Assembly (NCBI GenBank): GCA_035968315.1
Contig: JAVYIN010000007.1
Coordinates: 404,996 to 468,995 of the forward strand
Source of the DNA: Nitrospira sp.
GTDB lineage: Bacteria > Nitrospirota > Nitrospiria > Nitrospirales > Nitrospiraceae
Direction: 5' to 3'
DNA: 64,000 nt
Positions 12,329-57,349 of the stretch are shown piece after piece. The notes under the pieces are model-generated. The model was not told where the DNA came from, did not search any database, and saw nothing but the letters and a program-made list of their open reading frames with translations. The first letter of the stretch is position 1. Every line of letters begins with the position of its first letter. Both the position numbers and the translations under genes were made by a program.

Positions 12329-13330
12329 ATGAGTGACGATATCCTTCCCATACCTCGCATTCCTGAGGGGCTCCGTGAGGCTGCTCAGCGAGGCGTCTTG
12401 ATACCGTTCATTGGTGCAGGCGCCGCACGAATCGCAGGCTGTCCTGGCTGGTCAGAGTTTGCTGACGGAGCACTTCGACATTTTATTGATCAAGGAAAAT
12501 TTTCTCATAAACAACTGGCTCAAATTTCCCATCTGAATCCACGAGTAAAGTTGTCGATCGCTTTAGGACTCGAAAAGGAGCATGCGACCCATATCGATTT
12601 TCGTAAACTATTGCACCCGTCAGGAAAGAAAGACCACATTAAGGGGCGGAAGCTTTTTGCGAGTCTGTCCAAACTTGGAAAGACATTTGTTACGACCAAC
12701 TATGACGAATGGCTTGATGAAGAGATCGATTTGCCCCCAGTTGCTGCAGTGGTCGCATTCGGCCCAGCAGCGCCAGCCACTACGAACACACGGACCGTTA
12801 TTCATAAAGTTCATGACCTGACGCTGGCTAATCTCAATAAACCTAATACGGTTATCCATCTCCATGGCTCATTGGTAAACCCCGATGGCATGATCCTGAC
12901 TACGCAACACTATGTGCGTCATTATGCCAATGACAGGCTTTCCGGAAATGCTGAGAAGGAAAATCGAGTCCTGACTTTTCTCGAGCATCTCTTCAATGAA
13001 AAAACCGTTTTATTTGTTGGTTATGGCTTGGAAGAACTCGAGATCCTCGAATATGTCATCCTTAAGGCTCAACGCCCTCCTGGTGGGGTGCCACATGAGG
13101 CAAAGCACTACATTCTTCAAGGCTTCTATTCCCATGAACATGAATTAATGCGTAGCCTTACACGATACTATCTTGATGAATGCGGGATTCAGCTCATTCC
13201 GTTTCTTCGGGACAACAAGGACTGGGATCAGCTCCTAGAAGTCTTAGAGGAATTCGCACGCACTGCTCCTGCATCAAACCTGCAATTCTTGCAAGAGTTC
13301 AAGGAGATGGGGGAGCTTCTGAATGACTAA
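12329..13330 (+). CDS. SIR2-like NAD-binding domain protein, putative defence effector
   Basis: 333 residues. The SIR2-like motifs are complete: IPFIGAGAARIAG (Gly-rich NAD loop, residues 25-37), TTNYD (122-126, with the Asn needed for NAD hydrolysis in defence sirtuins), HLHG (177-180, catalytic His of the HG pair) and LFVGYGLEELEIL. No membrane segment or signal peptide. Many SIR2-like proteins in bacteria deplete NAD+ on phage infection (Thoeris ThsA, DSR, short-Argonaute partners), so an NADase effector is plausible. The stop overlaps the next ORF by 8 bases, indicating a two-gene unit. Codon use is visibly AT-richer than the flanking arsenic genes, a sign of transfer. No clear Shine-Dalgarno at this start. 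Confidence 0.82.
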   Translation: MSDDILPIPRIPEGLREAAQRGVLIPFIGAGAARIAGCPGWSEFADGALRHFIDQGKFSHKQLAQISHLNPRVKLSIALGLEKEHATHIDFRKLLHPSGKKDHIKGRKLFASLSKLGKTFVTTNYDEWLDEEIDLPPVAAVVAFGPAAPATTNTRTVIHKVHDLTLANLNKPNTVIHLHGSLVNPDGMILTTQHYVRHYANDRLSGNAEKENRVLTFLEHLFNEKTVLFVGYGLEELEILEYVILKAQRPPGGVPHEAKHYILQGFYSHEHELMRSLTRYYLDECGIQLIPFLRDNKDWDQLLEVLEEFARTAPASNLQFLQEFKEMGELLND

Positions 13331-30176: not shown

Positions 30177-33100
30177 ATGACCATTCAGCGCCTGGGCTTA
30201 TTCGATTTGCTGGCGCCCCACTATCTTGTGGGGTTCGATTTCCCCGAGTATATCCACCGGTACCTCTCCATCATTTCCGTCGATGAACTGCGGACGCAGG
30301 TCGGACCCCAAGCCATCCTCTACAGCGGAACCTGTTCGCTGGATGGCGCCGGAGCTGGAACCGAAATTGTCCATGAACCGCCGGGCGGCGGGGGCGGCCG
30401 GTTTCGCTGGAACGGCTTGCGGATGCGCTTCCGCATGGTCGTCCCGCGCGACGGGGCCGCATTTGTCAACACCGTTGCGCACTCGTCCAGCAACGGCAGT
30501 CTGCCTCAAGTGGCCGGCGTGCTGGATGATCTGTTGCCCACGGAACCGACATCCACGGCCGTCTCCGATTATCCGGGCCTGAGATTCCGCCTTGAACTGC
30601 TGGTTGATGCCCTGACCTTTTCGCTCGGCGACGAGTGGCTGCCGGGCAGGATCCATCCCACCACGCGGAGGGTCGAGCGGGATACCGACCCTCGCTTTGC
30701 GGGCAAGCCGGTGGAAATCCGTTTGCCGAAAGTGCTGCTCAGTTACAGCCAGGGCGACGATGACAATGATTTGAGCCCGCAATTTCGTCTGGAAGCCTGG
30801 GGAACGGCGGGATTTGACGGCCCGCACGATTTGGGCGTGGGCGAATTCATCAACATGGAACCGGGGATTGCCCTGCACCGTTCCGGCAGTTTTGCCTTCA
30901 GCATCGACGAAGTCGTGCTGGATACCAGCCCGGAATCCACGCCGCCTGAAATACTCGATCACTTTGGCGTCGGCGATGACTGGGAAGGGCTGTACATCAA
31001 GCAGCTTCTGCTCTACTACTCGAACGACCAGGGTGTTGGTTTCACGGCCCGGCTGGCCGACGCCCTGTTCTCCTTTCATGGGAAAGTGTCGTTCGAAGCC
31101 GAGCTCGATGTCTATCCCGATCTCGCGCTCACGATATTTTCCGTCACGCCCCGGTTTTTCCACGGGCCGACCAGGATCGAGTTCCGCCGCGGCACCGTCA
31201 GCGACGCGCTCGACACGCCTCCCGCCGGCGACCCGCCCGGGCTGGTCAATCTGATTCAGGGCGATGTGCTGCAGCTGGATGTCGGAGGAGGCACGCCGGA
31301 CTACACCATCGAAGTGCTCGATGGCAGCACCGATGTATGGGAGAGTTCGTCGCGCCGCGCCGTGTTCAATAGCCCCGGCACGCATGATGTGTTCATCAAG
31401 GTCACCGACAGCCGCGCGGGAACGCCCCGCCGCCATCGCGAATACCTGCGCATCGTGGTCGCCGCCGCCACGACGGCGGCTCCGCCCTCCGGCACCCCGG
31501 TCGACCGCCGCTCCGACGACCATCCGTTGCCGGCGCTCCAGTATGCGGTGTCTGCCGGGCAAACCGGCGGGCATGACCTGATCAAGGAACGCGAAGAAGG
31601 CACAAGCGCTCATTTCAGAGTGGAGGGCGGGGAGCAATTTACCGTCACCGTTACGCCCCACGGCGGCGGGGCCGTGCTTCGGACCATCACCAACCAGCGC
31701 CAGTTCACGCTGGATGTGGCCGAAGGCAGCGATGTCGATATCGAAGTCCAGTATCAAGCCATACCGGCCGGTCCTGTATCGGCGCAGTTCATCCGGTTTC
31801 AATTTGACCGGCCGGGCAATACCGAGCTGCCGCGGTACCTCGATCACACGAGCGGCGACAGCGAGTTCGAAAGCACGCTTGGCGCGTTCAACTTCCCGGA
31901 GGCGTCCACCGTCCAAAGTATTCAGTTGGACGGCTACGCGAGCAATGATCCCAGCAACGCCGCGCGCGACCAGGCGCTCTCCGGGCGGCGAAACCAGGCC
32001 GTGCAGGCGGCACTGGCCGCCCGGTACCCTAGTGCGACGTTCACGGCCAATGCGCACGGACATGGCACCACCGGAGATCCGCTGCCCAACCCGGCGAATA
32101 CGTCGGATCCGGCCAACCGGACTGTGCGGGTGGCCTTCACTCTGAGCGGCACAGGCGCGCACACACTCACGGCCCGTGCGCAGCGCGACGCCTACACCCC
32201 TCCGTCCAGCGGCTCTGGTCCTGAGCCCGCGCCTGTTCCACCGACGCCCGCCGCGCCGCCGCTCCCGGACCGGCTGCCCCCGGCCATCAAGCAACTCGGG
32301 GTCCGGATCAAGATCGACCAGGGCGACCTGGCGTTGTTCGAGCTGTACGGCAGCATCGATTTCGAGTCCGATCTGGAACAGAAGCTGCGCACGGGAGGGG
32401 CGCCCGCTCCGGAAGAAGGGGATACCTCCTGGACAAGCCACGACGGAATCCTCAATTTCAAATTGATTTATCAGTGGGACCGCGCGGCCGACGAAACCGC
32501 CATCGCGCTGCAATTGAGTTCCGACGAGGAAGATCGGGACGGCCTGCTGCATTTCAACAACAACGCGGCCCGCGACGACCGGTTCAAGAACATCGCCGGG
32601 GCGCTCATGTTGTTCGCGCCGATCATCAATGCGGCGGCGTCGGCGGCAGCCGACAACAGCCAGGACGCCGGCAACTGGGTGGCGTTGGGCGTGAGCGTGG
32701 CGGTGCCGGTCGCGATCGGGGGATTGAACGTCTTCCGCACCCGCCGGGGCATCCTCTACGGCGGCGAAGGCCGCTTCAAATGGATCAAATCCGCCAGCGG
32801 CGGTCCGGACCGCTGGGACTTCGCGATCGTCCTCGACTATGGCGTGGAATTCGATATCGTGGTGGAGTCGCTGGGAATCGGCCGCGACCGGCTGCCGGGC
32901 GCGCCCACGCCGCTGCCACCGCCGCTGAAAGCCCGGTACAAAGCCATCGGGTTCAATATCGCGCGCGGCCCTGCCGGCGAGGTCGTGTATACCGCGATCT
33001 TCGACCAAAGCAAGGGGTACGACCTCGACCTCTCCGATCCCAGCCTGTTCCGTCTGCCGGACCCGCTCGGGAACCTGTTCAGTATCGTGGGAGCCCGTGT

Positions 33101-36100
33101 GGCGCGGTTCAATCCCGTCACGCTCGAAATCGACTTTGCCATCAAGGTGGACCTTGGCGTCATCACGGTCGACCGGTTCAAGGTCAAAATTCCGCTCGAC
33201 CCGGTCGGCGTTCCCCAGATTCTGCCCAGCGGAGTCCGGGTCAATATTCCCGGCGTGCTCATCGGGAACGGCTTCGTCAACATTGTCGATGCGGATGTCA
33301 CGGACTCGAACGGCAACAGCATCCGCTCCAAGGGCATCGAAGGGGGGCTGGATCTCACGCTGGTGTCGTTGAAGCTCCGCATTGCCGGCAACATCGCCGT
33401 CGGCACGATCAAAGACAACAGCAGCGGGCGCGAAGCCATCGCGGTGTTTGTCGGCCTGATCGTCGAGTTCCCGACCCCGATCGTCCTGGGCCAGTCGGGG
33501 CTGGGTTTGTTCGGCCTTTCCGGCTTGTTCGCCATGCACTACCGGCGTCTGGAGGATCCGCGCAATCCCACCGAGGCCGTCGGGCCCGCGCTCAAATGGC
33601 TGATCAAAGCCCAGGGCGAGCCCTACAACCTCTACGCGCCGCCGCCCCCGCGCACGCCGGACAAGCGTCTGTGGGGTCCTGAATTCGACCGCTGGAGTTT
33701 CGGGGTCGGCGCGGTCTTGGGCACGCTGGAAGGCGGGATCCTGATCAATTTCCAGGGCATGTTCGTGCTCGAACTGCCCGGCCCGCGCATCCTGATCATG
33801 GTGAAAATCAGAATGATCAGCGCGCCGCCCAAAGTAGGGGACAACCCCAACCAGCTGAGCGTCGGCATCATCGGCATCATCGACCTGGATTTCGGCAAAG
33901 GAACGGTGACGGTCGGGGTCATGATCAATTTCGAGATCCAGGAATTGCTGAAGCTGGCGATTCCGATCGAAATCTTTTTCAATCTCAGAGAGGGCTCCGA
34001 CTGGCATTTCTATCTCGGCACGATTTCCCAGCCGGCGTCCGCCGAAATCCTCAACATCGTGCGCGGCAGCGCCTACTTCATGTTGCAGGGCAAGCAGCTG
34101 GTCTATGCCGACTACGGCAGCCGGGTGCCGGAGTTTTTGCGGGATAAGATTTTGCCGGGCGTGGCCATCGCGGCGGGGATCGAAGCCTCCATCCTGCTGG
34201 GGGATCCCGGTTCGATCTATCTCCGGATCTCCGCCGGGCTTGACGTCGGCGTGGCGTTCTCGCCGTTCATCATCGTCGGCACGATGCGGCTCGAAGGCGA
34301 ACTGCGTCTCCTGATCATCAGCATCGGCGCGCGCGGAGAGTTCAACGCGCTGATTTCGCAGCGGCCCGACAACTCGTACAAGACCTATCTGCAAGGCGAA
34401 ATCTGCGGCAGCGTCAGTTTCTTCTTCTTTTCGATTTCCGCCTGTGTGGGCATCGAAATCGGCACGGAAGATTTCGACCTCAAGCCGCCCGCGCTGCTGC
34501 GGGGCGTGTTCCTGCAAAGCTACTCGCCGGTCCTGGTGTCGGGGCAGGCGGCGAACCAAAAACCCATCGATGCGAGTTTGGGGAACGCCAAAGAAGTCAC
34601 CGGGGCCACTCCTCCGGCCGGTGAGCTGCTCAGCGTGCCGATCGACTCGGTCATCGTCCTGCAAATGTCGTTTGCGCCGGAGCTGGCGGCCACCTTCAAT
34701 ACGAATACATTCACCGAAGACGCGCTGGCCGCTCCCGGACGCCCGTCCGGCGGCTGGTATGGTTTGAGCGGCGACATCAGCCTGCAATACACACTCAACA
34801 GCCTGACGTTGACGGAAAACGGCGCGGCCTATGCCGGGACGGAGCCGCCGATCACCTGGCGCCTTGACCGGCCCCACCAGCCCAACGGCGCGGATACGGC
34901 CATCGATCTAGCTTTGTTCAGCCGGGTGCCCACGGCGGCGGAATATGCCGTGGAGCGGTCCACCGACCTGCGGGAAAATATTACGGTGCGCTGGGGCGAC
35001 GTCTGCAAGAGAGCGGCCCCCCCGGCGCGTGTGTTGTACACCTTCTGCGGACAGCCCCTGGGCCCGTCGATGCATGGCTGGCAGTTGCGGGGAACGGCCT
35101 ATCCGGATCCGCCGGACACCGTGCGGGTGGAACCGCCCGACACGCTCATGAGAGTGTATGCGCCGGAGTCCTGCGCCGGGCCTTCGACCCTCGACATCCT
35201 GCTGGCAGAAATGGGCTATCCCTATGAGGTGCCCGCCCAGATCATCGGCGACGACAGTCAGAACGATCTCAGCCCGGCCGGGCCGACCTCCGTCGAAAAG
35301 AAATGCTACGAGCTGTTTTTGCCCGAGCGCACCTACATGCCCAATCCCTTCAAGGTCGAAGACGCGCTGGTAATCTACAGCGCAGCCACGAAGAAGGATC
35401 TGGTCGTCTCGAAGTTGGGCGGATTTATTCCCGAAGAGCAGTTTGTGCGCAACCGCCGCTACCCCCTGCGCACGCAAATGCGGGATGTCGCCGGCTATCG
35501 GGGGGTGTCCCTGCGCGAATATATGCGCATCGACGTGCTCGGCCCGTCCGCGCAAGCCGTGACGGTGAAGATCTGGTCCAAGAACCAGCCGAAAACCACG
35601 CTGACGGTGTACGCCTACGACAGAGCCGGACGCTTGTTGAACAAGGTTCGCTGGCGGCCGACATCCGGAAAAGAGACCGAGCAAGCGTCGATCCGCATCA
35701 CGGGCGCCGAGATTCATCATCTGATTCTGACTAACCGGTATTTTACCGGCCTGCTCATCGAAGTGTGTCTGGAGCGGGCGCAGACCAGGCCAGACCGGCC
35801 GGCCGGCCACCGCTGCCACCGCGCCCTCGAATTGCCCTATGTCGAACGGCGCCGGGTGGCCCAAGGACAGGGGACCGACCAGGCTCAACTGAATCCCGAC
35901 CTCGTCGCCAAGTATCTCAGTGAGCGGGAGTCCTGTTCCTACGTGACCTTCGACACCGATGCCTGCGAGGAAGTCCTGTTCTGCGGCGCCGTCTACGGCA
36001 AGTTTTACGGGAAGGTCCAGGTGCTGGAAGTCGATGAGAAGGATCAGGTGGTGGCGGCCCACCTCCTGAGCGCCCTGGCGCCCACGGTGCTGGCCAGCCC

Positions 36101-37586
36101 GAGCCAGCTGCCGGCCCGCTGGCTCGATCCTGCCGGACCCTGGCGGTCCAGCGTGATGCCGGTGAGCCAATTCCTGTTCGGCTCCCGCTTGGCGTCCTAC
36201 GACAAAATTCTGTTCTCGGTCAAACCCAAGCCCGAGACCCGCAAGATCCGGATCTCAACGGCGCTGGTCACCGATGCGCTGCCGGCCATGTTCGTGGCGC
36301 TCGCCGAAACCTTGACGATGGGCGAAGTCCAGCGCCACGCCACGGTGACCGAGAGCATCGAGACCGACAAGGAAACCTTGACGGGCTATCTCAACGACAA
36401 TACGCCCCGCCCGCTGCTGAAGCCCAATACGGTCTATCGGCTGTCGGCCGGGTACACCGTCGTCGCCACGCACCCGACCAAGGGAGAAGTCTACAATCAG
36501 ACGCAGACCCAGGATTTCGCGTTCCGCACCGATAGTAAAGTTCCGGCGGAACTGGCCCCCTATGTGCTGGGCACCACGCCGGATATGGATGAACGCTTCC
36601 ATTTCTTCGCCGACCCCCTCCAGGTGTTGTTCAACGACCCGGCTATCCTCCGCATGGTGGAGGCGTACGGCAAACAACTGCGGGCGATCATCCGGGGCGC
36701 AGACGGAGCGCCGGTGGCGCAGAGTCCCGAAGTGATCTCCACGCTCACCGAGACGCCGGCCAGCGTGCTGTCGCCCTACCGCGACACCGTCCTGGCGCTG
36801 ATCGAGGCGGGTCTCTTCCCCTGCCTGGGCGGCTCGTATACCTTTACCGGCCATGCGGTGTACCAGGCGCCGTTCGAGCTGAAGCCGCTGACGCCCTACG
36901 TCTTTGACTTGGAATACACGGTGCCGGAGGCCGTGCCCGCCGGTCAGGCCGTGACCCCGTTGTACCGGCGCACGTTCCAGACGTCCCGCTATGCCGATGT
37001 GACCGATTTCGCCGCCAGCCACCGGGTCTATCCCATACGCCACCGGGCCCTGTCGGCCGACATCACGGGCTTGCCGGTTCCTGGCGGAAGCGGCACGCCG
37101 GTCGCGGGAGCCACCGACGTCGAAATCCAAAATGCCATTCTGGCGGCGGGCATGCCGCTGGATGACGATACCGAGACCACCGGCTTTACCATCCTGTGGC
37201 GCGAGGCAAGCGGACAGTACTATCCCTATGCGGTGCTGATCGATGCGGCCGAGCCCATGTGGCGCGTCCGGCAGGAGCCGTTGAAACGAACAGTCGTGAA
37301 CGAACACAACGAAGTCCTCGATCCGGCGTTCGTCGTGTACGAACAACAGACCGTCGAGCATCTCAAGCTCCGGCCCGCCAGCGGGCAGACCCGCATCCGT
37401 CACTTCGTGCGCTCCACCGGAGGCACCCGCACGCTGGCCTTCCTGCAGCGGAGCCCGGTGCTCACCGGCCGTGAAACGCTCACGATCGAAATCGTGCGCA
37501 CCGCGAGCGCGTTATTCGGGTTGGCCGAGCAGAGCGCCGTCCTGCTTCAACTGGAACTTTCACCCACTCCCCCGTGGGAGGCCTAA
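30177..37586 (+). CDS. Giant 2469-residue protein with internal OmpA-like region
   Basis: First of three large co-directional genes. No signal peptide (MTIQRLGLFDLLAPHYLVG). A PKD-like segment is at about 361-430 (QLDVGGGTPDYTIEV...TVTDSRAG-type), an OmpA/peptidoglycan-binding-like segment at about 537-655 (LDGYASNDPS, LSGRRNQAVQAAL), then a Pro-rich linker (about 674-703). A long central part to about residue 1430 is rich in short hydrophobic beta segments (DLDFGKGTVTVGVMINFEIQ; FFFFSISACVGIEIG). The C-terminal third has beta-domain texture without a family I recognise. GC content matches the genome, so it does not look recently acquired. Could be a surface or scaffold protein or an injection-system component; no such core genes are here. 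Starts without a clear ribosome site. Confidence 0.85.
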   Translation: MTIQRLGLFDLLAPHYLVGFDFPEYIHRYLSIISVDELRTQVGPQAILYSGTCSLDGAGAGTEIVHEPPGGGGGRFRWNGLRMRFRMVVPRDGAAFVNTVAHSSSNGSLPQVAGVLDDLLPTEPTSTAVSDYPGLRFRLELLVDALTFSLGDEWLPGRIHPTTRRVERDTDPRFAGKPVEIRLPKVLLSYSQGDDDNDLSPQFRLEAWGTAGFDGPHDLGVGEFINMEPGIALHRSGSFAFSIDEVVLDTSPESTPPEILDHFGVGDDWEGLYIKQLLLYYSNDQGVGFTARLADALFSFHGKVSFEAELDVYPDLALTIFSVTPRFFHGPTRIEFRRGTVSDALDTPPAGDPPGLVNLIQGDVLQLDVGGGTPDYTIEVLDGSTDVWESSSRRAVFNSPGTHDVFIKVTDSRAGTPRRHREYLRIVVAAATTAAPPSGTPVDRRSDDHPLPALQYAVSAGQTGGHDLIKEREEGTSAHFRVEGGEQFTVTVTPHGGGAVLRTITNQRQFTLDVAEGSDVDIEVQYQAIPAGPVSAQFIRFQFDRPGNTELPRYLDHTSGDSEFESTLGAFNFPEASTVQSIQLDGYASNDPSNAARDQALSGRRNQAVQAALAARYPSATFTANAHGHGTTGDPLPNPANTSDPANRTVRVAFTLSGTGAHTLTARAQRDAYTPPSSGSGPEPAPVPPTPAAPPLPDRLPPAIKQLGVRIKIDQGDLALFELYGSIDFESDLEQKLRTGGAPAPEEGDTSWTSHDGILNFKLIYQWDRAADETAIALQLSSDEEDRDGLLHFNNNAARDDRFKNIAGALMLFAPIINAAASAAADNSQDAGNWVALGVSVAVPVAIGGLNVFRTRRGILYGGEGRFKWIKSASGGPDRWDFAIVLDYGVEFDIVVESLGIGRDRLPGAPTPLPPPLKARYKAIGFNIARGPAGEVVYTAIFDQSKGYDLDLSDPSLFRLPDPLGNLFSIVGARVARFNPVTLEIDFAIKVDLGVITVDRFKVKIPLDPVGVPQILPSGVRVNIPGVLIGNGFVNIVDADVTDSNGNSIRSKGIEGGLDLTLVSLKLRIAGNIAVGTIKDNSSGREAIAVFVGLIVEFPTPIVLGQSGLGLFGLSGLFAMHYRRLEDPRNPTEAVGPALKWLIKAQGEPYNLYAPPPPRTPDKRLWGPEFDRWSFGVGAVLGTLEGGILINFQGMFVLELPGPRILIMVKIRMISAPPKVGDNPNQLSVGIIGIIDLDFGKGTVTVGVMINFEIQELLKLAIPIEIFFNLREGSDWHFYLGTISQPASAEILNIVRGSAYFMLQGKQLVYADYGSRVPEFLRDKILPGVAIAAGIEASILLGDPGSIYLRISAGLDVGVAFSPFIIVGTMRLEGELRLLIISIGARGEFNALISQRPDNSYKTYLQGEICGSVSFFFFSISACVGIEIGTEDFDLKPPALLRGVFLQSYSPVLVSGQAANQKPIDASLGNAKEVTGATPPAGELLSVPIDSVIVLQMSFAPELAATFNTNTFTEDALAAPGRPSGGWYGLSGDISLQYTLNSLTLTENGAAYAGTEPPITWRLDRPHQPNGADTAIDLALFSRVPTAAEYAVERSTDLRENITVRWGDVCKRAAPPARVLYTFCGQPLGPSMHGWQLRGTAYPDPPDTVRVEPPDTLMRVYAPESCAGPSTLDILLAEMGYPYEVPAQIIGDDSQNDLSPAGPTSVEKKCYELFLPERTYMPNPFKVEDALVIYSAATKKDLVVSKLGGFIPEEQFVRNRRYPLRTQMRDVAGYRGVSLREYMRIDVLGPSAQAVTVKIWSKNQPKTTLTVYAYDRAGRLLNKVRWRPTSGKETEQASIRITGAEIHHLILTNRYFTGLLIEVCLERAQTRPDRPAGHRCHRALELPYVERRRVAQGQGTDQAQLNPDLVAKYLSERESCSYVTFDTDACEEVLFCGAVYGKFYGKVQVLEVDEKDQVVAAHLLSALAPTVLASPSQLPARWLDPAGPWRSSVMPVSQFLFGSRLASYDKILFSVKPKPETRKIRISTALVTDALPAMFVALAETLTMGEVQRHATVTESIETDKETLTGYLNDNTPRPLLKPNTVYRLSAGYTVVATHPTKGEVYNQTQTQDFAFRTDSKVPAELAPYVLGTTPDMDERFHFFADPLQVLFNDPAILRMVEAYGKQLRAIIRGADGAPVAQSPEVISTLTETPASVLSPYRDTVLALIEAGLFPCLGGSYTFTGHAVYQAPFELKPLTPYVFDLEYTVPEAVPAGQAVTPLYRRTFQTSRYADVTDFAASHRVYPIRHRALSADITGLPVPGGSGTPVAGATDVEIQNAILAAGMPLDDDTETTGFTILWREASGQYYPYAVLIDAAEPMWRVRQEPLKRTVVNEHNEVLDPAFVVYEQQTVEHLKLRPASGQTRIRHFVRSTGGTRTLAFLQRSPVLTGRETLTIEIVRTASALFGLAEQSAVLLQLELSPTPPWEA

Positions 37587-37589
37587 GCC

Positions 37590-40500
37590 ATGTCCACTGT
37601 CACGCCGCAATTCAGGCTGTTTGCCGAACCGCTGCCTTGGCCCTTGGGGCCGGAAGGCAAGCCGGTCGAGACCGCCGAGTTTGTCAACGCCGCGCAGGAG
37701 GCGCTCAAAAAGTTTCAGACGGGCGAGCCGGTGACGCCCAATTACACGCCGGACTTTTCCGCGCTGCCGGTAGGGCTGCGCTGGACCATGCTGCCCGAGT
37801 TCGGATTTCCCCGGCAGCCGTTCCGGCTCTATCGCCGTGTCCGGAAGTACAGCATGGATAAACTGGTCACCTCCCCCCTCGCGGTGTCCGGCGAAGCCAA
37901 TGTGCCCTTTCCAACCGAGATGTATGTGCTGGAAGTGGGGGTGACGCTCGCCGCCGGCCAGAGCCTGACGCTGGAGCCCCGTGATCGCAATGGACAGGCA
38001 TTGCCGGGAGCCCGGCAGGTGCTGACAGCCAGCGGCACGGCCAGGTTCCGGTCGCCGTTTATGGCGTCGCTGCGTTGCGCCGGTGCGGGCACGGTCAATT
38101 ACGTGTTGGGCACGCCCACCGACCGCGTCGTGAATGCGAACGACTGGCAGTTGGTGCAGATCGTCGGACTGCCGTTCCCCCCCGGTGTCACGACCGCGTA
38201 CAGCAGCGCGCTGCAGGGATTTGCGTCGTCGCCGACCAGGCCGGATCTGGCGGCGTTCCAACGGCTGTTGCTCGGCTATTATCTCAAGCCGCCGGTGCCG
38301 GACCTTGGCGCGGCTCCGCTGGCCACGCCGGATTGGCAAGCCCCCCGGCCGGATAAATATGTGCAGTACCTGACCACGGATCCGGGAAGCCTGCTGGTCG
38401 ATATTCAGAAGTGCCTGGAAATCTCCGACGACAGTTCCTGGAATCCCGCCGACCGGCAACCGGCCTATATCGCCGAGCGCACGGTCTCGGGTATTCATCA
38501 AACCGGCGTGGCGCCCTCGACGTCCGGAACCGCGCGGTTCCCCGTCGTGGCGAGCACGCTCTTGCAGGTCAGCAGCGACAGCTTCGGTTCGCTGGCGCTG
38601 GGCTACGGCACGTACGATTTCGCCCGGATGGTCGATCAGCCCACCCTGGCCGCCGTTCCTCTGGCGTACGATTATAAAGTTGAAGCGGAGTATGTGCTGC
38701 GGCCTGGCCGGCCGATCAAGCTTCCGGAACTCTTCGACAGTGTTTCGGACCGGCATATCTTCGCCGCGCTTTCCGAAGGGTTGCCCGCGCCGGCGGTCCC
38801 CGCCGACCTGCGCGAGCGCACCTTGCGGAAGAACCGGCCGGAGAGCCGCGACGGGCAGGCGTCCGAAGCCGTTAAAGTGTCCTGGCAGCAACCGGAGCTG
38901 CCGGAAGCCTGGGGCCTGGTCGCGAGCCGGCAAACCGGGCCGGCCGAATGGCTCAATACCGAAAACTTCTTCTCCGAAAAAAGCTACCAGCCCTATCTCA
39001 CCCGTGCGCCGCAGAACGAGCTGCCGGGCGAAGACACGGGCCGGTTCAATTATGTGGACGCCGAAACGCCGCTGCCGCCGTACGGCACGATTCCCGTGCG
39101 GTACTTCGTCGCCGGGATCGATGTGCTCGGGCGCTGGTCGGCGTTCCGGGACGTCGTGCATGCGAGTGAGGCCCTTCCTTCGCAGCGCCCGATCATCAAC
39201 ACGGTGAAGCTGGCCTTGCCGGATCCGAACGTGTTTCCTCCTCCGACGCCGGCTGCGGTGGACTGCCGATTGGAAATCGAATTTTCCTGGGAGTGGAGCG
39301 ACCGCCGCGCCGCTCAGATCCAGTTCGCCGGACAATTTTACCCCGCTCGCACCACGCCCCCGGCTGCGGCGCCAGCGGGGTTCTCGGTGCATTCGTCCAA
39401 CGCCGCGCATCCCTTGGTCACCGTCACGTTCGACATGAACGGGAACCCGACCGGCACGGACTTGGGCAGCGTCTACCGTTTGGCCGATGTGCCGCCGGAT
39501 GGGGCGTCTCTGCCGCCCCTGCCCGGCCTTGTCCAATACCGGCTGGAGATTCCCGTGGTCACGGCAGTCTTCCCCTCCGGTGATCCGCATGCCGTGGGCT
39601 ATGCCGCCTATGTGCGAGGGCTGGAGCGATTGCGCCAGCCGGTCACGGAGTACTCGCCTTGGTCGCCGCCCGCCACCACGGAACTGCCGGACCCCCGCAA
39701 GCCCGCGGTCGTGAACCTTCCGGCTGATGTGCAGTGGACGGCCCTGCCGGACGCGACGAAGAAAGCGCGTGGGCGCCTGAGCTGGCCCTCGGCCGCCAAT
39801 GCACTCGGGTACATCGTGTGGGAAGCCAGCGAAACGGCGCTGCGGTTTGCGCTCGGCGAGGTGCTTAAGACCAGATTCCCCGGCGATCAAAGCCGGTGGC
39901 TCCTGCCCTTGAGCGACTCGCATGTGGCGCGGGCCACGCAGCTGCGGGGGTTGCTCCTGCAGCCGGAGTATGCCCAGCTCTGCGCGAAAGCCTTCACCCG
40001 CTACAACCGGGAATTGCTGCCCGCGACATTTGTGGAGCTGGAACTGGCCGGCAGTGCCGAAGGGCTGACGGTGTTCCGCGTTTCGTCCGTCAATCGGTCC
40101 AACATCGAATCGGACAAGTCCGCTCCGGTGTTTTTTGCCGTGCCCCGGCTCAATCGCCCGGTCGCGCCCAATCTTTCGCTCAAGGCGAACGGGACTGGCA
40201 TCGAAGTGCAGGTGTTGGGCAACAGTCCGGCCACCACCGCGGGCTACCGGGTCTACCGGACGCGCAAGCCGCCGCTCTCCCGGGATGTGGGCGCCAAGGG
40301 GCTGCCGGCATTCCGGGAAGACAATCCGGCGTGGCAAAACTTCACGGCACAGATGCTCCATGGACCGGCGTTGAACGGCAAGAAGATCCTCGATCCCGTC
40401 GCGGCGCGTTCCTGGCGGCCCTTGTATTACCAGGTCACCGCCATCGGCACGGCCGATCCGGCGCGGGGCACCTATGCCGCCGAATCGGCCGGCTCTTCCA

Positions 40501-40871
40501 CCAGGCTGGCCTATTGGGCGCCGGACGTTCCGCCGCTCCTGGCCCTCACCGGCCCGGCAGCCTTGCCGGTCCTGCATCTGCGGACCGATCTGCCGTTCCA
40601 TGCCGTGGAGCTGGGCAAGGCGCTGATCGACGTGTTTCGAACAGACACCATCCCGGGCACCGGAGTCGTGAAAACACCGGTGGGGCAATGGATCGCCGAT
40701 GCGCTGCCGCCCGCCTCGCCGCCACCGGCGGCGCCGCGCCTGGAGAATGTGGTGACCACGACCGGCACGGGCATCACCACGTTCGATCTGGTGCTGCCGG
40801 CCGGGGTTGTGTCCGGAATCGTGCGCGTCACCGATCCGTTGGGGCGGTCGACATCGATCATGTTTTCCTAA
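37590..40871 (+). CDS. Large 1093-residue protein with fibronectin-like segments
   Basis: Second gene of the operon, 3 bases after the first. No signal peptide or membrane helix. Segments resembling fibronectin type III strands are visible: KARGRLSWPSAANALGYIVWEAS (about 728-750) and TTAGYRVYRTRKPPL (about 880-896), plus beta-rich repeats such as FSWEWSDRRAAQIQFAGQFY. The C terminus ends with IVRVTDPLGRSTSIMFS. No enzyme motif found. Ribosome site GGGAGG overlaps the end of the previous gene, so translation is probably coupled. It may assemble with its neighbours; function unknown. Confidence 0.82.
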   Translation: MSTVTPQFRLFAEPLPWPLGPEGKPVETAEFVNAAQEALKKFQTGEPVTPNYTPDFSALPVGLRWTMLPEFGFPRQPFRLYRRVRKYSMDKLVTSPLAVSGEANVPFPTEMYVLEVGVTLAAGQSLTLEPRDRNGQALPGARQVLTASGTARFRSPFMASLRCAGAGTVNYVLGTPTDRVVNANDWQLVQIVGLPFPPGVTTAYSSALQGFASSPTRPDLAAFQRLLLGYYLKPPVPDLGAAPLATPDWQAPRPDKYVQYLTTDPGSLLVDIQKCLEISDDSSWNPADRQPAYIAERTVSGIHQTGVAPSTSGTARFPVVASTLLQVSSDSFGSLALGYGTYDFARMVDQPTLAAVPLAYDYKVEAEYVLRPGRPIKLPELFDSVSDRHIFAALSEGLPAPAVPADLRERTLRKNRPESRDGQASEAVKVSWQQPELPEAWGLVASRQTGPAEWLNTENFFSEKSYQPYLTRAPQNELPGEDTGRFNYVDAETPLPPYGTIPVRYFVAGIDVLGRWSAFRDVVHASEALPSQRPIINTVKLALPDPNVFPPPTPAAVDCRLEIEFSWEWSDRRAAQIQFAGQFYPARTTPPAAAPAGFSVHSSNAAHPLVTVTFDMNGNPTGTDLGSVYRLADVPPDGASLPPLPGLVQYRLEIPVVTAVFPSGDPHAVGYAAYVRGLERLRQPVTEYSPWSPPATTELPDPRKPAVVNLPADVQWTALPDATKKARGRLSWPSAANALGYIVWEASETALRFALGEVLKTRFPGDQSRWLLPLSDSHVARATQLRGLLLQPEYAQLCAKAFTRYNRELLPATFVELELAGSAEGLTVFRVSSVNRSNIESDKSAPVFFAVPRLNRPVAPNLSLKANGTGIEVQVLGNSPATTAGYRVYRTRKPPLSRDVGAKGLPAFREDNPAWQNFTAQMLHGPALNGKKILDPVAARSWRPLYYQVTAIGTADPARGTYAAESAGSSTRLAYWAPDVPPLLALTGPAALPVLHLRTDLPFHAVELGKALIDVFRTDTIPGTGVVKTPVGQWIADALPPASPPPAAPRLENVVTTTGTGITTFDLVLPAGVVSGIVRVTDPLGRSTSIMFS

Positions 40872-40889
40872 ACCGGCGAAGAGCACGTT

Positions 40890-43800
40890 ATGTCTTTTCT
40901 ATCTGACGCAGCCACAGTCGCCTTTCGAGAAGCCGGCCTGCAGCCGCTGGGCATCGGCATGCCGTTCATCTCCAAAAAATGGTGCAGCCACAGCGCGGCC
41001 GACGCAGGCGGACGCATCGCCTTCAACGCCGCGCGCCTCTCGTTGACGCTCTCGGGCAGCGAGACCTGGCTCTGTCCGATTTCGGCCCGGGCCGTCAAAA
41101 CCAATGCGTCCGATCGCAAACCGACCGTCACGCTGACCAAAGCCGACGGCACAGCCGTGAACGGCGCCGGGTTGCTGTTCGAACTGTTCCCCGGCGCGCT
41201 GCAGCGCCTGAGACGGCTGTACGTCCGCCGCCTGGAAGCGGCCAGTCCCGTCAACTACCCGAATAAACCGGCCGACCGGCCCATCAGACCGGTCCCGAAG
41301 TATGTCTTCATCGAGTCGGGTGACGTGGCCGAGGCTGTCACCGGCGGATGGCTCCATGCGGGGCAGGACACGGGGATCGCGGGCGAACTCTTCTTCTTCG
41401 ACGAGCAGGGACATATCATCCATCCCCTGATGGTGGCCTCCTGCTGGACCGTCCTGGCCGGCGCTTATGCCGGCCTCGTGAAAGAGAGCACGCCGGACCA
41501 GATCACCGGCATTGCGGGGCTGAGCGCCGCGTCGTTCACCGTGCGGATGGTCAAGCCGGACGGGACGCCGTACGGCGGAGCCTTTGTGAACGGCAAAACC
41601 GACGCGACGCCGGCCATCGGGCTCTTCACGGTGTCGGCCTATGCCGGTTCCGATACGGAACTCAAAGGCGAGCTGACCCGCCAGGCCGATACCGGCGCAA
41701 CCGGGGCCTTTCCGCTGGAACAGGCCCGGCACCTCCACCTGGGATTGGATACGTTCGGGCGGCTCGGCAACCGGTGCGCCCTGCCCGCGCTTCCCGCTTC
41801 CACCACGCTGACGCACGACTTTTTCACCGTCAAAGTGCTCGACACCAGCACGTACCTCACGGGAGCGCCGGACCGGTCTACCGCCGGCTACATGGGATCC
41901 CGCCTCGAACCGGCTCCGGTGGTGCGGTTGCATGAAGATCTCACGACCCTGGCGGACGGCAATGCCGTGATGCAGCGGCTGCATGGCCTGTTCAACGGAG
42001 CGGCGACCGAATCGCTGGCGGCCGCGGCGGAGATCAATCCGAAATTCGTCCTGCCGGCCGGCACGGATCTGTATTGGCCCGCCTTCCCGCCGCTGACCGG
42101 CTCCAGCGCGCCGGCCGACGACGCCACGTTCCCATCCGATTTCAAACAGCAAGTGATCGCGGCCAGCCGCGCCGTTGTCATCGACGGAAGCAGTCCCGAT
42201 GTGCGGCTCACCCTCGCCGGCCTGCCGGTGGATTGCGCCGTGCGGGTCTACCATCGGGTGTTTAGCAGCGGCGCCGTGCTGAGCCGGGGGGATGGAGCCG
42301 GAGGGCTGGCCAATAGCGTTGCGGCACCAGCCGCGGGCCGAACCTTCAACGGACAATGTGTCCTGCGCCTGGCGAACCCGCTGGGGCTCGAACCGCCGTT
42401 CACCTTCGCCCCGGCGCCCAAATTGATTTTTGACATGGTCGTGGTCGAGCGCTCCGGGAAGAAGCGGATTTTCGGGAACCTCGAATTGCCGTTGAACACG
42501 ACTCCCGAAGCAGGCCCTGCGGCGGTGGCCGACAATGCGGTGGCGACGGCCGCCAAACAGGGGGTGTGCCGGGCCGGCGTCCTGGGCCTGCGCCGGACGA
42601 GCGCGCCGCTGCCGGCGCTCGTCGATCTGAATGCGCTCTTGAACGCCATCGTGCAACTGGGAGGGGAAACCCCTCCGCGCGATGCGCCGCGGCTGCCCAC
42701 CATGGCGCGCCGCGATCTGCTGGCCGCCGCCAAGCGCGGCGCCAACTGGACGGCGGTGCTGGCCGGAGGCCCGATCGGGCCCGCCATGCATTCGGCCCAG
42801 CCAACCCTCGGCGCGCCCGGTTCGCAGGGCGGTCCCGAAACGCAGTATGCCGGCGTCTCCACCCAAAATGCCGTGCTGGCTTACGACATCGCCCGCATGG
42901 CTTTCCGGCGCACGACCTCGTTGTATGACCGGATTCAGCAACTGAACAACAGCACCTGGGACGAGCCTGTGCGCAATACGCCGCTCACGCTCGGCGAATC
43001 GCCCAACGGCACACGCGGCACGATGGCCGGCGCGGTGTTGCAGACGATCGCGCCTTATTGCGAAACCCCGGAGCTGGCGCTGCTCAAGTCGGTGGTGGAG
43101 GCGAACATCGGGTCGATCCCGCGCGATTGGAACGCCCTGGTGGACCTGGTGGTGAGTTGGATCGATGGCCTCAACCTGGCCGGGCTGCCCAGTCCGCTGG
43201 ATACGGCCGGCGCCCGGTTGAACACCGAGCTCAGGAACCGGCTCAACGCGCTCAAGGACAACGATCCCGGACGCGAATCGCAGCGGGAACGCCTGTACGG
43301 CGAACTCCTGCGTGAGCTGAGCGCGGCCTGTTTCGGCCGCCGCGATGCGCAGTGGGCGCTGGAACAGGCCATCAAAAACGCACGCCGGTTCATCTATCTC
43401 GAAACGCCGGGGCTCTCCTTTACCGAAGCCGGCACGGCGCAGCCCTATTCGCGCAATTTGAAGAGCCTGTTGGCGGCGCAGATCTCGACCCATCCGGGCC
43501 TCAAGGTGGTGATCTGTGTGCCGAAGGCGCCGGACTACGGGAAGGGCTACGAGCAATACCGGGCCAAAGAGGTGAAAGACCGGTTCGACCTGGTGCTGGA
43601 CCTGCCGTCGGCGAACGTGGTGTCGTTCCACCCGGTCGGGTTCCCGGGGCGGCCCAGCCGCCTGGAATCGCAGGTGGTCATCGTGGACGACGAGTGGGCG
43701 ATGGTCGGATCCTCCAGCTTCCGCCGGCGCGGGCTCGCGTTCGACGGCAGCAGCGACCTGGTGTGGACCGATCTTGAGCGCAGCGACGGAGTGGCCCCTT

Positions 43801-44090
43801 CCATTGCCGCGTTCCGCAGGACGCTGATGGCGGCGCGCCTGGGCATTACCGGCGACGGGTTCGACAGCCGCCGGTTGATGCTGGAGGATGTGGCCGACGT
43901 GTTCCACCTCATCCGCGAAACCCTGCGCGACGGCGGCCTGGGGCGCATCGAGCCCTTGTGGAATGGGCGGACGGACGGCGTCACCTATTCCGAACCCACC
44001 CTCGACAGCAACTTGGTGAACCCGGACGGGGTCGAATTCCAAACGCTGAACGCGCTGGTATTGGCCGCGCTGGGCAGCGTGCCGCTGTGA
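40890..44090 (+). CDS. Large 1066-residue protein with degenerate phospholipase-D-like C-terminal domain
   Basis: Third gene of the operon, 18 bases after the second. No signal peptide. The N-terminal 600 residues are beta-rich and unrecognised. A phospholipase-D-like half begins at about residue 815 (WALEQAIKNARRFIYLETPG) and ends with VVIVDDEWAMVGSSSFRRRGLAFDGSSDLVW near 929-958. At the place of the HxK(x4)D motif the sequence is E926-S-Q928 with D933 kept, so the catalytic His and Lys are gone. The domain is therefore probably structural or binding rather than hydrolytic. Only one such half is evident, where active PLD enzymes need two. Confidence 0.82.
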   Translation: MSFLSDAATVAFREAGLQPLGIGMPFISKKWCSHSAADAGGRIAFNAARLSLTLSGSETWLCPISARAVKTNASDRKPTVTLTKADGTAVNGAGLLFELFPGALQRLRRLYVRRLEAASPVNYPNKPADRPIRPVPKYVFIESGDVAEAVTGGWLHAGQDTGIAGELFFFDEQGHIIHPLMVASCWTVLAGAYAGLVKESTPDQITGIAGLSAASFTVRMVKPDGTPYGGAFVNGKTDATPAIGLFTVSAYAGSDTELKGELTRQADTGATGAFPLEQARHLHLGLDTFGRLGNRCALPALPASTTLTHDFFTVKVLDTSTYLTGAPDRSTAGYMGSRLEPAPVVRLHEDLTTLADGNAVMQRLHGLFNGAATESLAAAAEINPKFVLPAGTDLYWPAFPPLTGSSAPADDATFPSDFKQQVIAASRAVVIDGSSPDVRLTLAGLPVDCAVRVYHRVFSSGAVLSRGDGAGGLANSVAAPAAGRTFNGQCVLRLANPLGLEPPFTFAPAPKLIFDMVVVERSGKKRIFGNLELPLNTTPEAGPAAVADNAVATAAKQGVCRAGVLGLRRTSAPLPALVDLNALLNAIVQLGGETPPRDAPRLPTMARRDLLAAAKRGANWTAVLAGGPIGPAMHSAQPTLGAPGSQGGPETQYAGVSTQNAVLAYDIARMAFRRTTSLYDRIQQLNNSTWDEPVRNTPLTLGESPNGTRGTMAGAVLQTIAPYCETPELALLKSVVEANIGSIPRDWNALVDLVVSWIDGLNLAGLPSPLDTAGARLNTELRNRLNALKDNDPGRESQRERLYGELLRELSAACFGRRDAQWALEQAIKNARRFIYLETPGLSFTEAGTAQPYSRNLKSLLAAQISTHPGLKVVICVPKAPDYGKGYEQYRAKEVKDRFDLVLDLPSANVVSFHPVGFPGRPSRLESQVVIVDDEWAMVGSSSFRRRGLAFDGSSDLVWTDLERSDGVAPSIAAFRRTLMAARLGITGDGFDSRRLMLEDVADVFHLIRETLRDGGLGRIEPLWNGRTDGVTYSEPTLDSNLVNPDGVEFQTLNALVLAALGSVPL

Positions 44091-44234
44091 GCAGGGCCTT
44101 CATGCCGTGAGAGCCGCACCGGTTGAGGTATGGCTAGCTCCGCAGGGTGATTCCAGCGGCAGCTCCTGTCTATGCCGAACCGTTTCGCGCCGCCAGATCC
44201 GACGCACAGACCGCTTTGTTGACACTCTGTGGGC

Positions 44235-44278
44235 AGCCCGAGAATCCGCCGCCCCTCGGGGCGGCGGATTCTCGGGCT
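44235..44278. terminator. 21-bp perfect hairpin between convergent genes
   Basis: AGCCCGAGAATCCGCCGCCCC (44235-44255) pairs perfectly with 44258-44278, leaving a two-base gap and so a CTCG-type tetraloop in practice. It sits between the ends of the 1066-residue gene and the multicopper oxidase gene and can fold on both strands. No T-run follows on the plus strand, so it may also act as an RNA-stabilising or repeat-derived structure. Confidence 0.7.
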
Positions 44279-44294
44279 GACAAGGCGGGACTGA

Positions 44295-54788: not shown

Positions 54789-56288
54789 CTACTTGGCCAG
54801 TTCTATCAGTCGCATGGAAATGATTTGTTCCAAGGGTGCAAGCTTATCGGTGTCCTTTGAGCCTTCCGAAACTAGCGCTTCTGCTGTTTTTGGATCTTGC
54901 CGCCTTTCCTCTCGGGCAAGGTGAAGAAGAGCACGCACAACGGATCGTAGATCTTTCCTGTTTCTTGCCTCAATTATGGCCATCTGATACAAGGATCGCC
55001 CTTCCTCAGGTGCACCAGATCTAAAACGAAGCAATCCTTTGGTGGCAAGATATGTTGGTTTATATGCGCTATTGTTTTCGGGTAGGACAATCTTCTCAAA
55101 GCTATCGCAGGCTTCATCTATCTTGCCCTGGTAGGCTAAAGCTACCGTCAGATTGTTGAGCAGTAGAAAGTCTGAAGGATGCATACGCAGTCCATAGCGG
55201 GCTATAGACTCACCTTCTTCAGCGCCTGAGGTGGATAATAATGCTACCCAAGATCCAAATACGGCTGCTCTTTTTGCAAATGGCTCATCTGCTAACCAAA
55301 GTTGGGCTGCTTTTAAGCTCTCATCCCACTGGGACTCACCAATGGCTGACCAAGCTCTCGCCTCGAATGACCTAGGTACTTGGAGCAAGCTGGGGTCCAC
55401 GCCGATATTGTCCGACCTCCTTGATAGCCAGGCTGCTTGAGCAACAGAGTTTTCTGTCGGTTTCTCAAGTGCTTTGCGGAAGAGTTTTTTTACTGAGCGA
55501 ATATTCCCAGCTTCCCAATCAAGCGTACCCAATGCCCCCGCTAGTTCAGAAATGTGCGATGGGTGGAACTTATGTGATTCAATGCAATGCCTTCCCGTTT
55601 TTATGAGTTTGGAGGTTCTTCCTGCGGCACTAGCCACAGCAATTTCGGCCGCGAGCAACCATGGGTCTTCTTTTACATTGCTTGCCCGACGTAACAGATC
55701 ATGAGCTTGCTCAGCGTCGTCGTAGTGGAGGAAAAATCTAGAAGCTGATCTTAGAACGAATCGATTGGAGGGTGCTAAACTTAACGCCATCTGCATGGGC
55801 TTCAAAGCATGAAGGGGTTGCCCCAAGGCTACGTACTCGCGGGCAAGATCCAGGTATGCAAGGGGGTTTCTAGGGAACTCCTGGAGTACTTTCCGAAGTA
55901 GCCGGATGTTTTGCCTGGTAGACTCGATTGATTGAAGTGGAGGATCGGGTAGCAAGGTTTGAGCACGAGATCTATCGGCAATAATCATGTGTGCGAGATC
56001 GCGTGCTGCTTTTGACGCCGGTCGATCCGAATTCAGAATAAACTCGGCAGCCGGCTTTGCGACGGATGATTGGCCTAGAGCAAAGGCTGCTCCAATAAAA
56101 TCTCCTGCGAAGGGGAGGCTGTGATGAGTGTCCCAATCTGCCTTAGCCTTGGTTAGTTCCTCAAGTTGGGGTTTCAAAGGAGTGTGTCGATCCGCAGAAC
56201 TATCAACGCCTCCGAGACTAATGGCTTCTCTCCAGGGTCGCCAACGCGGAACTACTCTTCTTCTGGGATCTTCTAATGATGAAGACAT
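54789..56288 (-). CDS. TPR-repeat protein of the kinase operon
   Basis: 499 residues, helical, with degenerate tetratricopeptide texture in the middle and C-terminal half: AYLDLAREYVALGQPLHALKPMQMALSLAPSNRFVLRSASRFFLHYDDAEQAHDLLRRA, LLNNLTVALAYQGKIDEACDSFEKIVLPEN. The N-terminal 90 residues are not TPR. No catalytic motif. It follows the kinase gene by 5 bases on the same strand, so the two are co-transcribed and it is likely the partner, substrate or sensor of the kinase. AT-richer than the surrounding genes. Confidence 0.8.
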   Translation of the reverse strand: MSSSLEDPRRRVVPRWRPWREAISLGGVDSSADRHTPLKPQLEELTKAKADWDTHHSLPFAGDFIGAAFALGQSSVAKPAAEFILNSDRPASKAARDLAHMIIADRSRAQTLLPDPPLQSIESTRQNIRLLRKVLQEFPRNPLAYLDLAREYVALGQPLHALKPMQMALSLAPSNRFVLRSASRFFLHYDDAEQAHDLLRRASNVKEDPWLLAAEIAVASAAGRTSKLIKTGRHCIESHKFHPSHISELAGALGTLDWEAGNIRSVKKLFRKALEKPTENSVAQAAWLSRRSDNIGVDPSLLQVPRSFEARAWSAIGESQWDESLKAAQLWLADEPFAKRAAVFGSWVALLSTSGAEEGESIARYGLRMHPSDFLLLNNLTVALAYQGKIDEACDSFEKIVLPENNSAYKPTYLATKGLLRFRSGAPEEGRSLYQMAIIEARNRKDLRSVVRALLHLAREERRQDPKTAEALVSEGSKDTDKLAPLEQIISMRLIELAK

Positions 56289-56293
56289 ATGGT

Positions 56294-57349
56294 TTATGTT
56301 CGGAGCCCAATTTCGGCTCTACTCGCTAATAGGTTAAATAGCGAAACATATCTTTGAAGCGAAAACGGGTTTCCAAATTTCATACTTCGGTCTCTTGGGT
56401 GGCCTCGTAATGATGGATCAGGATCACATAATTGGCTCAGTGCTTCACGTAGCTCTGATCTAAACTCAGCCGGGAACTCATGTGCTGAATAATCCAGTGC
56501 GTCAGCGAAAGCTGCTCTAAGATATGGAAGCACTTCTTCGTAGGTTCCGTGCCAGTTGAGCCAATGAAATCGCTCATCGAGAGTCATTTGAATGAGCTGT
56601 GTCATGCTCAGGGTTGTAAAAAAAGATGAGATCATACTTCCCAAAAGGTAGGCGTCGCAGCCCATCCGTCTTGCTTCCCATGAGCTAGGAGCTGAGCCGT
56701 AGAGAAGCTCGGGTGGTGCATAGCGCTGCTCACCTGGAATAACAAGGTCGTAATGCGGTGGCTCAACTCCTCGAGCAGCAGCCCGACCGACATCGGCTAT
56801 CTTTGAAGATGAGGCATCATCGAAGACCAAAACATTAGACGGTTTGAGGTCTTGATGCGCTACATTTATCGAGTGAAGCTGTTCCACCCCTAATGCAATA
56901 TGGTGTAGTGATCGAAACATCCATGCGATATCAACCTGGTCTGCCTTCGCAAGTTGTGAGCGAATATCCCCATCAGCAAGTTCGAATATTATGTACTGGA
57001 CCGTAGATGGAGGAGGAATTCCTGGTACAGTAACGGCCCCATCATCCAAGGCTGTCACAACTCGGGATAGCTTTCTATCTCTGCATCTGTGTAATAGGTC
57101 ACATTCAAACACAAACGCGTCAATATATGGTTTTAGGGCTACTGCTGGATTTGTATGGTCCGAAAGTCTTGAGAAAAAATCCAGTGCTTTGACGTAGCCT
57201 TGTTTCCCATCTTTGTGCTGGGCAATATATCCACAAGAGAAGAAGCCTCCTGTGCTGGTCCCATGCTTTTCCACTCTTTTTAGGACATGCCAATCATTGG
57301 CAAGAGTCAAGCCCTCTAAGAGTTCATGGGGAAATGTTCTGGTTGTCAT
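56294..57349 (-). CDS. Hanks-type serine/threonine kinase (variant catalytic loop)
   Basis: 351 residues, protein kinase fold with no transmembrane helix. Gly-rich stretch GTSTGGFFSCG (30-40), candidate Lys54 (YVKALDF), Glu82 in FECDLL, catalytic loop HQDLKPSN (165-172) with Asp167, Lys169, Asn172, and DVG (186-188) in place of DFG; then the activation segment GEQRYAPPELL. HRD is replaced by HQD, which keeps Asp. This looks active but belongs to a divergent branch. Three-gene unit with HTH upstream and TPR downstream; AT-rich, suggesting transfer. Strong AGGAGGAGT ribosome site. Confidence 0.85.
   Translation of the reverse strand: MTTRTFPHELLEGLTLANDWHVLKRVEKHGTSTGGFFSCGYIAQHKDGKQGYVKALDFFSRLSDHTNPAVALKPYIDAFVFECDLLHRCRDRKLSRVVTALDDGAVTVPGIPPPSTVQYIIFELADGDIRSQLAKADQVDIAWMFRSLHHIALGVEQLHSINVAHQDLKPSNVLVFDDASSSKIADVGRAAARGVEPPHYDLVIPGEQRYAPPELLYGSAPSSWEARRMGCDAYLLGSMISSFFTTLSMTQLIQMTLDERFHWLNWHGTYEEVLPYLRAAFADALDYSAHEFPAEFRSELREALSQLCDPDPSLRGHPRDRSMKFGNPFSLQRYVSLFNLLASRAEIGLRT

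What the first reader, a model, noticed from the sequence alone, without database searches (positions are those of the whole stretch)
30177..44090. Operon of three giant proteins without signal peptides
2469, 1093 and 1066 residues, gaps of 3 and 18 bases, one strand, genome-like composition. Beta-rich texture, a PKD-like and OmpA-like region in the first, fibronectin-like strands in the second and a PLD-like end in the third suggest a large extracytoplasmic or injected assembly, yet none has an export signal. The lack of tail or secretion genes nearby leaves the delivery route open.
Basis: partly seen in the sequence, partly recalled or inferred. Interest (0 to 1): 0.75.

Follow-up and report, generated by a model that had tools for sequence, protein, structure and literature searches.

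The report
Giant-protein cassette with swappable hydrolase
Three adjacent giant genes in a Nitrospira bacterium form a conserved, mobile and apparently undescribed gene cassette, found also in distant bacteria, in which two large scaffold-like proteins travel with an interchangeable enzyme that attacks lipids or cell walls (here decayed), so it may be an unknown kind of cell-envelope weapon or remodelling complex.

Summary
In detail: genes A (2469 aa), B (1093) and C (1066), gaps of 3 and 18 bases, no export signal, purifying selection on all three (dN/dS 0.09-0.16). A and B occur together in all seven divergent loci found (Nitrospira, two other Nitrospirota lineages, Rhizobium tropici, Paracoccus, Azospirillum, Mycetohabitans); six have a third gene. 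A contains a divergent relative of DUF6603 (profile-profile E 4e-19; shuffled controls nil). The third gene is interchangeable: intact eukaryote-type phospholipase D, M15 peptidase or, here and in R. tropici, a PLD-derived domain without its catalytic His and Lys. Canonical DUF6603 operons share the design: 14 Nitrospirota operons have PLD, PhoD-like phosphatase or M64 peptidase directly upstream. The cassette sits in a variable region, at different sites in related species; no relatives in phages or viral contigs. Contractile-injection or T6SS genes are not required: a complete carrier genome has none detected. Most likely reading: a modular, signal-less, envelope-directed effector complex with unknown delivery route; here the enzyme has become a pseudoenzyme. 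Cassette identity is firm; function is inferred. AlphaFold models failed (pLDDT 28-30). PKD and fibronectin readings were not confirmed.

The parts
30177..37586 (+). gene A, 2469-aa giant protein with a divergent DUF6603-like core
31908..32057 (+). OmpA-like segment of A (residues 578-627), sub-threshold, recurring in the R. tropici and Paracoccus homologues
33078..34499 (+). DUF6603-like core of A (about residues 968-1441)
   Evidence: profile-profile E 2e-18 to 4e-19 with canonical DUF6603; shuffled controls nil
37590..40871 (+). gene B, 1093-aa partner protein, no library match
37776..37838 (+). N-terminal LRW...GFP...F.LYRR signature of B (residues 63-83), shared by the B proteins of other loci (by eye)
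40890..44090 (+). gene C, 1066-aa third-position protein, PLD-derived at its C-terminal end
43350..43844 (+). PLD-like domain of C (residues 821-985), single recognisable half
43665..43691 (+). degenerate HKD motif of C, ESQVVIVDD instead of HxKxxxxDD
44234..44279 (.). 21-bp perfect hairpin between the operon and the convergent multicopper oxidase gene, probable bidirectional terminator
   Evidence: fold z-score -8.15

Best explanation
The operon is one system: a divergent member of a broad class of giant-protein cassettes centred on DUF6603-type proteins. SHOWN: A carries a divergent DUF6603-like core; A and B are inherited together in divergent bacteria; the third position is interchangeable and elsewhere holds hydrolases of phospholipid (PLD) or peptidoglycan-type peptides (M15), and in canonical DUF6603 operons also PhoD-like phosphatases and M64 peptidases; here that position holds a PLD-derived protein lacking its catalytic His and Lys. 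INFERRED: A and B assemble into a large soluble beta-rich scaffold in the cytoplasm, C docks on it, and the complex works on a cell envelope (A's OmpA-like segment may hold peptidoglycan; C's PLD fold may bind phospholipid). Because no protein has an export signal, the complex would leave the cell by lysis or an unknown route, as phage-tail-like particles do, and act on neighbouring cells; in this lineage C would be a lipid-binding or structural pseudoenzyme.
For: Co-inheritance and translational coupling of A, B and a third gene in divergent loci; DUF6603 homology of A with clean controls; exchangeable hydrolases: PLD with intact HKD, M15 with intact zinc-site pattern, PhoD and M64 in canonical operons; the PLD profile matches true phospholipases including the type VI effector PldA rather than nucleases (PMC9550806); purifying selection on all three genes; mobility and patchiness.
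Against: No experiment; no reliable structure; no delivery route found; C of this genome is catalytically degenerate; no immunity gene; Azospirillum's third protein has no recognised domain and Paracoccus has no third gene. An enzyme in an operon does not prove that it acts outside the cell.
Confidence: 0.42

Rival explanations
1. An intracellular conflict (anti-phage or abortive-infection-like) system: A and B are a large sensor or scaffold and the third protein is the effector that damages the cell's own membrane or wall.
For: Patchy, plasmid-borne or in variable regions; signal-less; exchangeable effector. Some loci lie near restriction, OLD-type nuclease or toxin-antitoxin genes; the window also carries a SIR2 gene pair elsewhere.
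Against: No matching PADLOC system; the MkoB and DrmC matches are weak and lie in the PLD region only. Several loci have no defence neighbours. M64 and M15 enzymes are unusual for abortive infection.
Confidence: 0.2
2. A surface or extracellular structural assembly (adhesin, coat or wall-bound matrix) exported by an unrecognised route.
For: Beta-rich giant proteins, OmpA-like segment, LamG-like repeats in the C-terminal half of the Mycetohabitans homologue; giant bacterial proteins are often surface proteins (PMC12863079).
Against: No signal peptide, anchor or secretion gene; the swappable hydrolase is not explained.
Confidence: 0.18
3. Cargo of a type VI or extracellular contractile injection system encoded elsewhere in the genome.
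For: The PLD profile matches the type VI effector PldA; the own genome has tube-like genes on C9 and a sheath-like gene on C5, and G355 and G420 have adjacent tube and sheath genes.
Against: G129 (100% complete) has no tube, sheath or VipB match, and neither do G014, G040 and G384 (87-88% complete). The own-genome tube and sheath genes lie on different contigs with no recognised tail cluster.
Confidence: 0.1
4. A lipid-handling machine: the DUF6603 core forms a hydrophobic beta groove that carries or holds lipids, and PLD-type partners modify them (bridge-like lipid-transfer analogue).
For: The core is a long run of alternating-hydrophobic strands (sequence; strand pattern in the low-confidence model), and PLD is a common partner.
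Against: The model is unreliable; no matching solved structure by sequence; M15 and M64 partners do not act on lipids.
Confidence: 0.1

Closest known systems
DUF6603 (Pfam PF20248) giant-gene operons
   Same: Homologous core domain in A; multi-gene giant operon without signal peptides; exchangeable hydrolase beside it
   Different: A is below the Pfam cut-off; B and C are not related to the canonical partner proteins; A is twice as long as canonical DUF6603 proteins
Bacterial/eukaryote-type phospholipase D, including the type VI effector PldA (7v53; PMC9550806)
   Same: C-terminal PLD-like half of C; intact true PLDs stand in this position in Mycetohabitans and G355
   Different: C lacks His and Lys of the HKD motif, only one PLD half is recognisable, and no secretion system is linked
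Extracellular contractile injection systems and tailocins
   Same: Large signal-less proteins with exchangeable enzymatic components; release by lysis is plausible (general knowledge)
   Different: No sheath, tube, baseplate or AAA gene in the cassette; a complete carrier genome has no tube or sheath match
Polymorphic toxin systems
   Same: Conserved large carrier with a variable toxic enzyme
   Different: The enzyme is a separate gene rather than a swapped C-terminal domain; no immunity gene; no known trafficking domain

Membership tests
DUF6603 (PF20248) | Score over the curated Pfam cut-off | tested here: not met
   No PF20248 hit for P0001 at E up to 5; none in the own genome
DUF6603 (PF20248) | Homology along the domain | tested here: met
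   hhalign E 2.2e-18 and 4.3e-19 over about 400 columns; shuffled and unrelated controls negative
DUF6603 operon class | Giant co-directional partner genes with a hydrolase-type gene in the operon | tested here: met
   Layout met in seven A-type loci; hydrolase intact in three, degenerate in two including this one, unrecognised in Azospirillum, absent in Paracoccus
Phospholipase D | HxKxxxxD catalytic motifs, two per active site | tested here: not met
   ESQVVIVDD in C; no first half recognised
Phospholipase D | Sequence homology to the PLD fold | tested here: met
   Residues 828-1053 match plasmid-borne PLDs, best E 1e-6; below the Pfam cut-off
OmpA-like peptidoglycan-binding domain | Score over the curated cut-off | tested here: inconclusive
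   15.1 against 27.2 bits; similar weak hits at the same place in two homologues
Contractile injection system / T6SS | Sheath, tube and baseplate genes in or linked to the cassette | tested here: not met
   None in the neighbourhood; G129 without tube, sheath or VipB match
Polymorphic toxin system | Linked small immunity gene | tested here: not met
   No small co-directional gene follows C: the next genes of the window are on the other strand, and in G040 the next gene reads as RNase HI
Secreted surface protein | Signal peptide or anchor | tested here: not met
   Frame-limited N-termini without hydrophobic core; heuristic, no SignalP

The most novel reading that the evidence does not exclude
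DUF6603-type cassettes, including this A-B-C branch, are an undescribed class of mobile, signal-less giant-protein particles, shared by bacteria and haloarchaea, that carry exchangeable envelope-attacking enzymes and reach other cells without a phage-tail apparatus.
Probability: 0.25. Interest if true: 0.9.

Novelty: new variant of a known kind. Interest (0 to 1): 0.62.

Why it matters
It turns three orphan giant genes of a nitrifier into a branch of a cross-phylum, cross-domain gene-cassette class with a clear design rule (conserved giants plus swappable hydrolase), for which I found no paper in the open-access library. If the complex acts on other cells or on the cell's own envelope, it would be an undescribed delivery or remodelling machine; even if not, it gives DUF6603, a family of unknown function, a testable functional context.

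Tried and rejected
AlphaFold of the A core and of C: alignments of only 3-4 close orthologues were possible, and both models failed (pLDDT 29.9 and 27.7), so no fold search was run. Viral-contig scans for A, Mycetohabitans A and canonical DUF6603: nothing. The genome search could not be centred outside Nitrospirota, so the spread in other phyla rests on plasmid records only. A match of B residues 113-210 to a peptidase structure (3njh, E 0.004) vanished with a profile and is rejected. PADLOC MkoB/DrmC matches are weak and cover only the PLD region. B and C against the canonical operon partners: no relation. Orphan tube and sheath genes in the own genome were considered as a delivery route: they lie on different contigs with no recognised tail cluster around them.

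Full report
OBSERVATION. The window lies in a Nitrospira metagenome assembly, contig C7 of an 11-contig, 99.97% complete genome (genus inferred from the named near relatives). The genome holds one copy of each. They are real genes: against two sister species dN/dS is 0.09-0.16 for all three, and the long minus-strand ORFs over the same DNA are broken by stops in a relative. No longer N-terminus is possible, because the open frames begin only 4, 1 and 6 codons upstream, and no hydrophobic signal core is present; this is a hydropathy heuristic, not SignalP. A 21-bp perfect hairpin at 44234-44279 separates the operon from a convergent multicopper oxidase gene and probably terminates both.

DOMAINS BY LIBRARY. 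The OmpA trace recurs at the corresponding place in the R. tropici and Paracoccus homologues (E 0.0021 and 0.082), so it is probably real but divergent.

DISTRIBUTION IN NITROSPIRA. Among 99 relatives searched, A, B and C are in only two besides the own genome, G014 and G040. A further assembly, W63, holds C and part of B on a short contig, and G384 holds A and the start of B, cut by the contig end. Wherever the contig allows, the three are together and in the same order. G000 and G014 share the insertion site, next to the Ap4A phosphorylase and the membrane-transporter genes; G040, G384 and W63 have a different site, beside genes that read as chorismate synthase and/or RNase HI. In G022 the transporter and the flavin reductase that flank this region lie about 730 bases apart without the cassette. 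The cassette therefore sits in a variable segment.

RELATIVES IN OTHER TAXA. tblastn and profile searches found the same module in Rhizobium tropici CIAT 899 (megaplasmid, A-B-C, about 28% identity), Paracoccus aminophilus (plasmid, A-B), Azospirillum oryzae (plasmid, A-B-third gene), Mycetohabitans (plasmid, B-C-A), G129 (another Nitrospirota family, A-B-third gene) and G355 (another Nitrospiraceae genus, B-C-A). In all seven divergent loci A and B are adjacent or separated only by C, with gaps of -8 to +18 bases. B proteins diverge fast but give weak mutual profile matches and share an N-terminal signature LRW..(G.P)..F.LxRR, read by eye and loose in Paracoccus.

A IS A DIVERGENT DUF6603 PROTEIN. 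A profile of six A cores matches a profile of canonical DUF6603 domains with hhalign probability 99 and E 2.2e-18 (4.3e-19 without the two most divergent members). Ten column-shuffled controls gave E 0.12 or worse, the reversed control 0.004, and B, C and other giant partner proteins gave nothing. The A profile also picks canonical DUF6603 genes out of whole genomes at about 1e-6. By the Pfam cut-off A is not a member.

THE THIRD POSITION IS INTERCHANGEABLE. In Mycetohabitans and G355 it is a phospholipase D with intact HKD motifs. In G129 it is a protein with an M15 peptidase domain whose zinc-site pattern is intact (also matched by a phage endolysin family). In Nitrospira and R. tropici it is a protein of about 1070 aa whose C-terminal part is PLD-like, but with His and Lys replaced (ESQVVIVDD, RSTTVIVDD). 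In Azospirillum it has no recognised domain; in Paracoccus no third gene was found. A profile of the four PLD-type proteins matches PLD alpha 1 (6kz8, 1.8e-17), PLD2 (6ohm, 6e-11) and the type VI effector PldA (7v53, 9e-9) better than nucleases (PMC9550806); the two intact members probably drive this match.

CANONICAL DUF6603 OPERONS FOLLOW THE SAME RULE. DUF6603 is in 30 of 296 Nitrospirota genomes and in none of 14 control genomes. The usual operon is [enzyme]-DUF6603-giant-giant-smaller protein. Directly upstream of DUF6603 I found PLD (G229, G057, G145, G042, G012), PhoD-like phosphatase (G281, G231, second locus of G012, G018, G179, G069) or M64 peptidase (second copy of G145, G182, G308), 14 operons in all; a few other loci have an unassigned gene there. 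Of the PhoD assignments, G281, G231 and G018 pass the Pfam cut-off, G012 and G179 rest on similarity to G018, and G069 is below the cut-off. Plasmid loci in haloarchaea, Streptomyces and Nocardia repeat the giant-gene layout, with PhoD, peptidoglycan-binding or S8 peptidase proteins in the operon. The canonical giant partners are not detectably related to B or C, so this operon is a separate branch.

DELIVERY. No phage or viral-contig relatives were found. Tube, sheath and VipB families have no match in G129, a 100% complete genome that carries the cassette, nor in G014, G040 and G384 (87-88% complete). The window's genome has two tube-like genes on C9 and a sheath-like gene on C5, with no tail cluster recognised around them. 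A contractile system is therefore not a general requirement, and no secretion genes are linked.

MECHANISM. Shown: one co-inherited, selected, mobile unit; A has a DUF6603-like core; the third position is an exchangeable hydrolase that is degenerate here. Inferred: A and B form a large soluble scaffold which the enzyme joins; the complex is directed at the lipid or wall of a cell envelope; its exit from the cell is by lysis or an unknown route. I give the envelope-directed reading 0.42, with an intracellular conflict system (0.2) and a surface assembly (0.18) as main rivals. Structure prediction could not help: with the few closely related sequences allowed, both models failed.

NOVELTY. The library of 5.39 million open-access papers has no mention of DUF6603; the genes may be described under other names or in papers not held. 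I rate it a new variant of a known but functionally uncharacterised kind, with a fair chance that the whole class is a new type of system.

Noticed in passing
window 12329-16199: Low-GC gene pair, SIR2-like protein (PF13289, E 2e-16) followed by a 958-aa protein without Pfam match, overlapping by 8 bases: looks like a SIR2-type phage-defence pair (GC 0.48).
   Followed up: partly
window 54789-57349: Low-GC pair of a serine/threonine-type kinase (PF00069) and a TPR protein, in a second low-GC island.
   Followed up: partly
window 44234-44279: Perfect 21-bp hairpin with a 4-base loop and no T-run, between convergent genes (fold z-score -8.15).
   Followed up: partly
G000 contig C5 about 960365 and contig C9 about 92377-93270 (L127, L125): A sheath-like gene and two tandem tube-like genes (PF04984, PF06841) lie on different contigs of the window's genome with no tail cluster recognised around them.
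   Followed up: partly
L107 and L101: A third DUF6603 operon type (first locus of G012, and G079) with its own partner proteins; the G012 locus has an intact PLD directly upstream.
   Followed up: partly
L104 (G145) and L105 (G182): Tandem DUF6603 genes, separated in G145 and G182 by an M64 peptidase gene.
   Followed up: no
L109:11883-14664: Two tandem paralogous proteins upstream of DUF6603 in G236 that read by eye like trypsin-type serine proteases (LTNHHVASSIG); no Pfam match for the one scanned.
   Followed up: no
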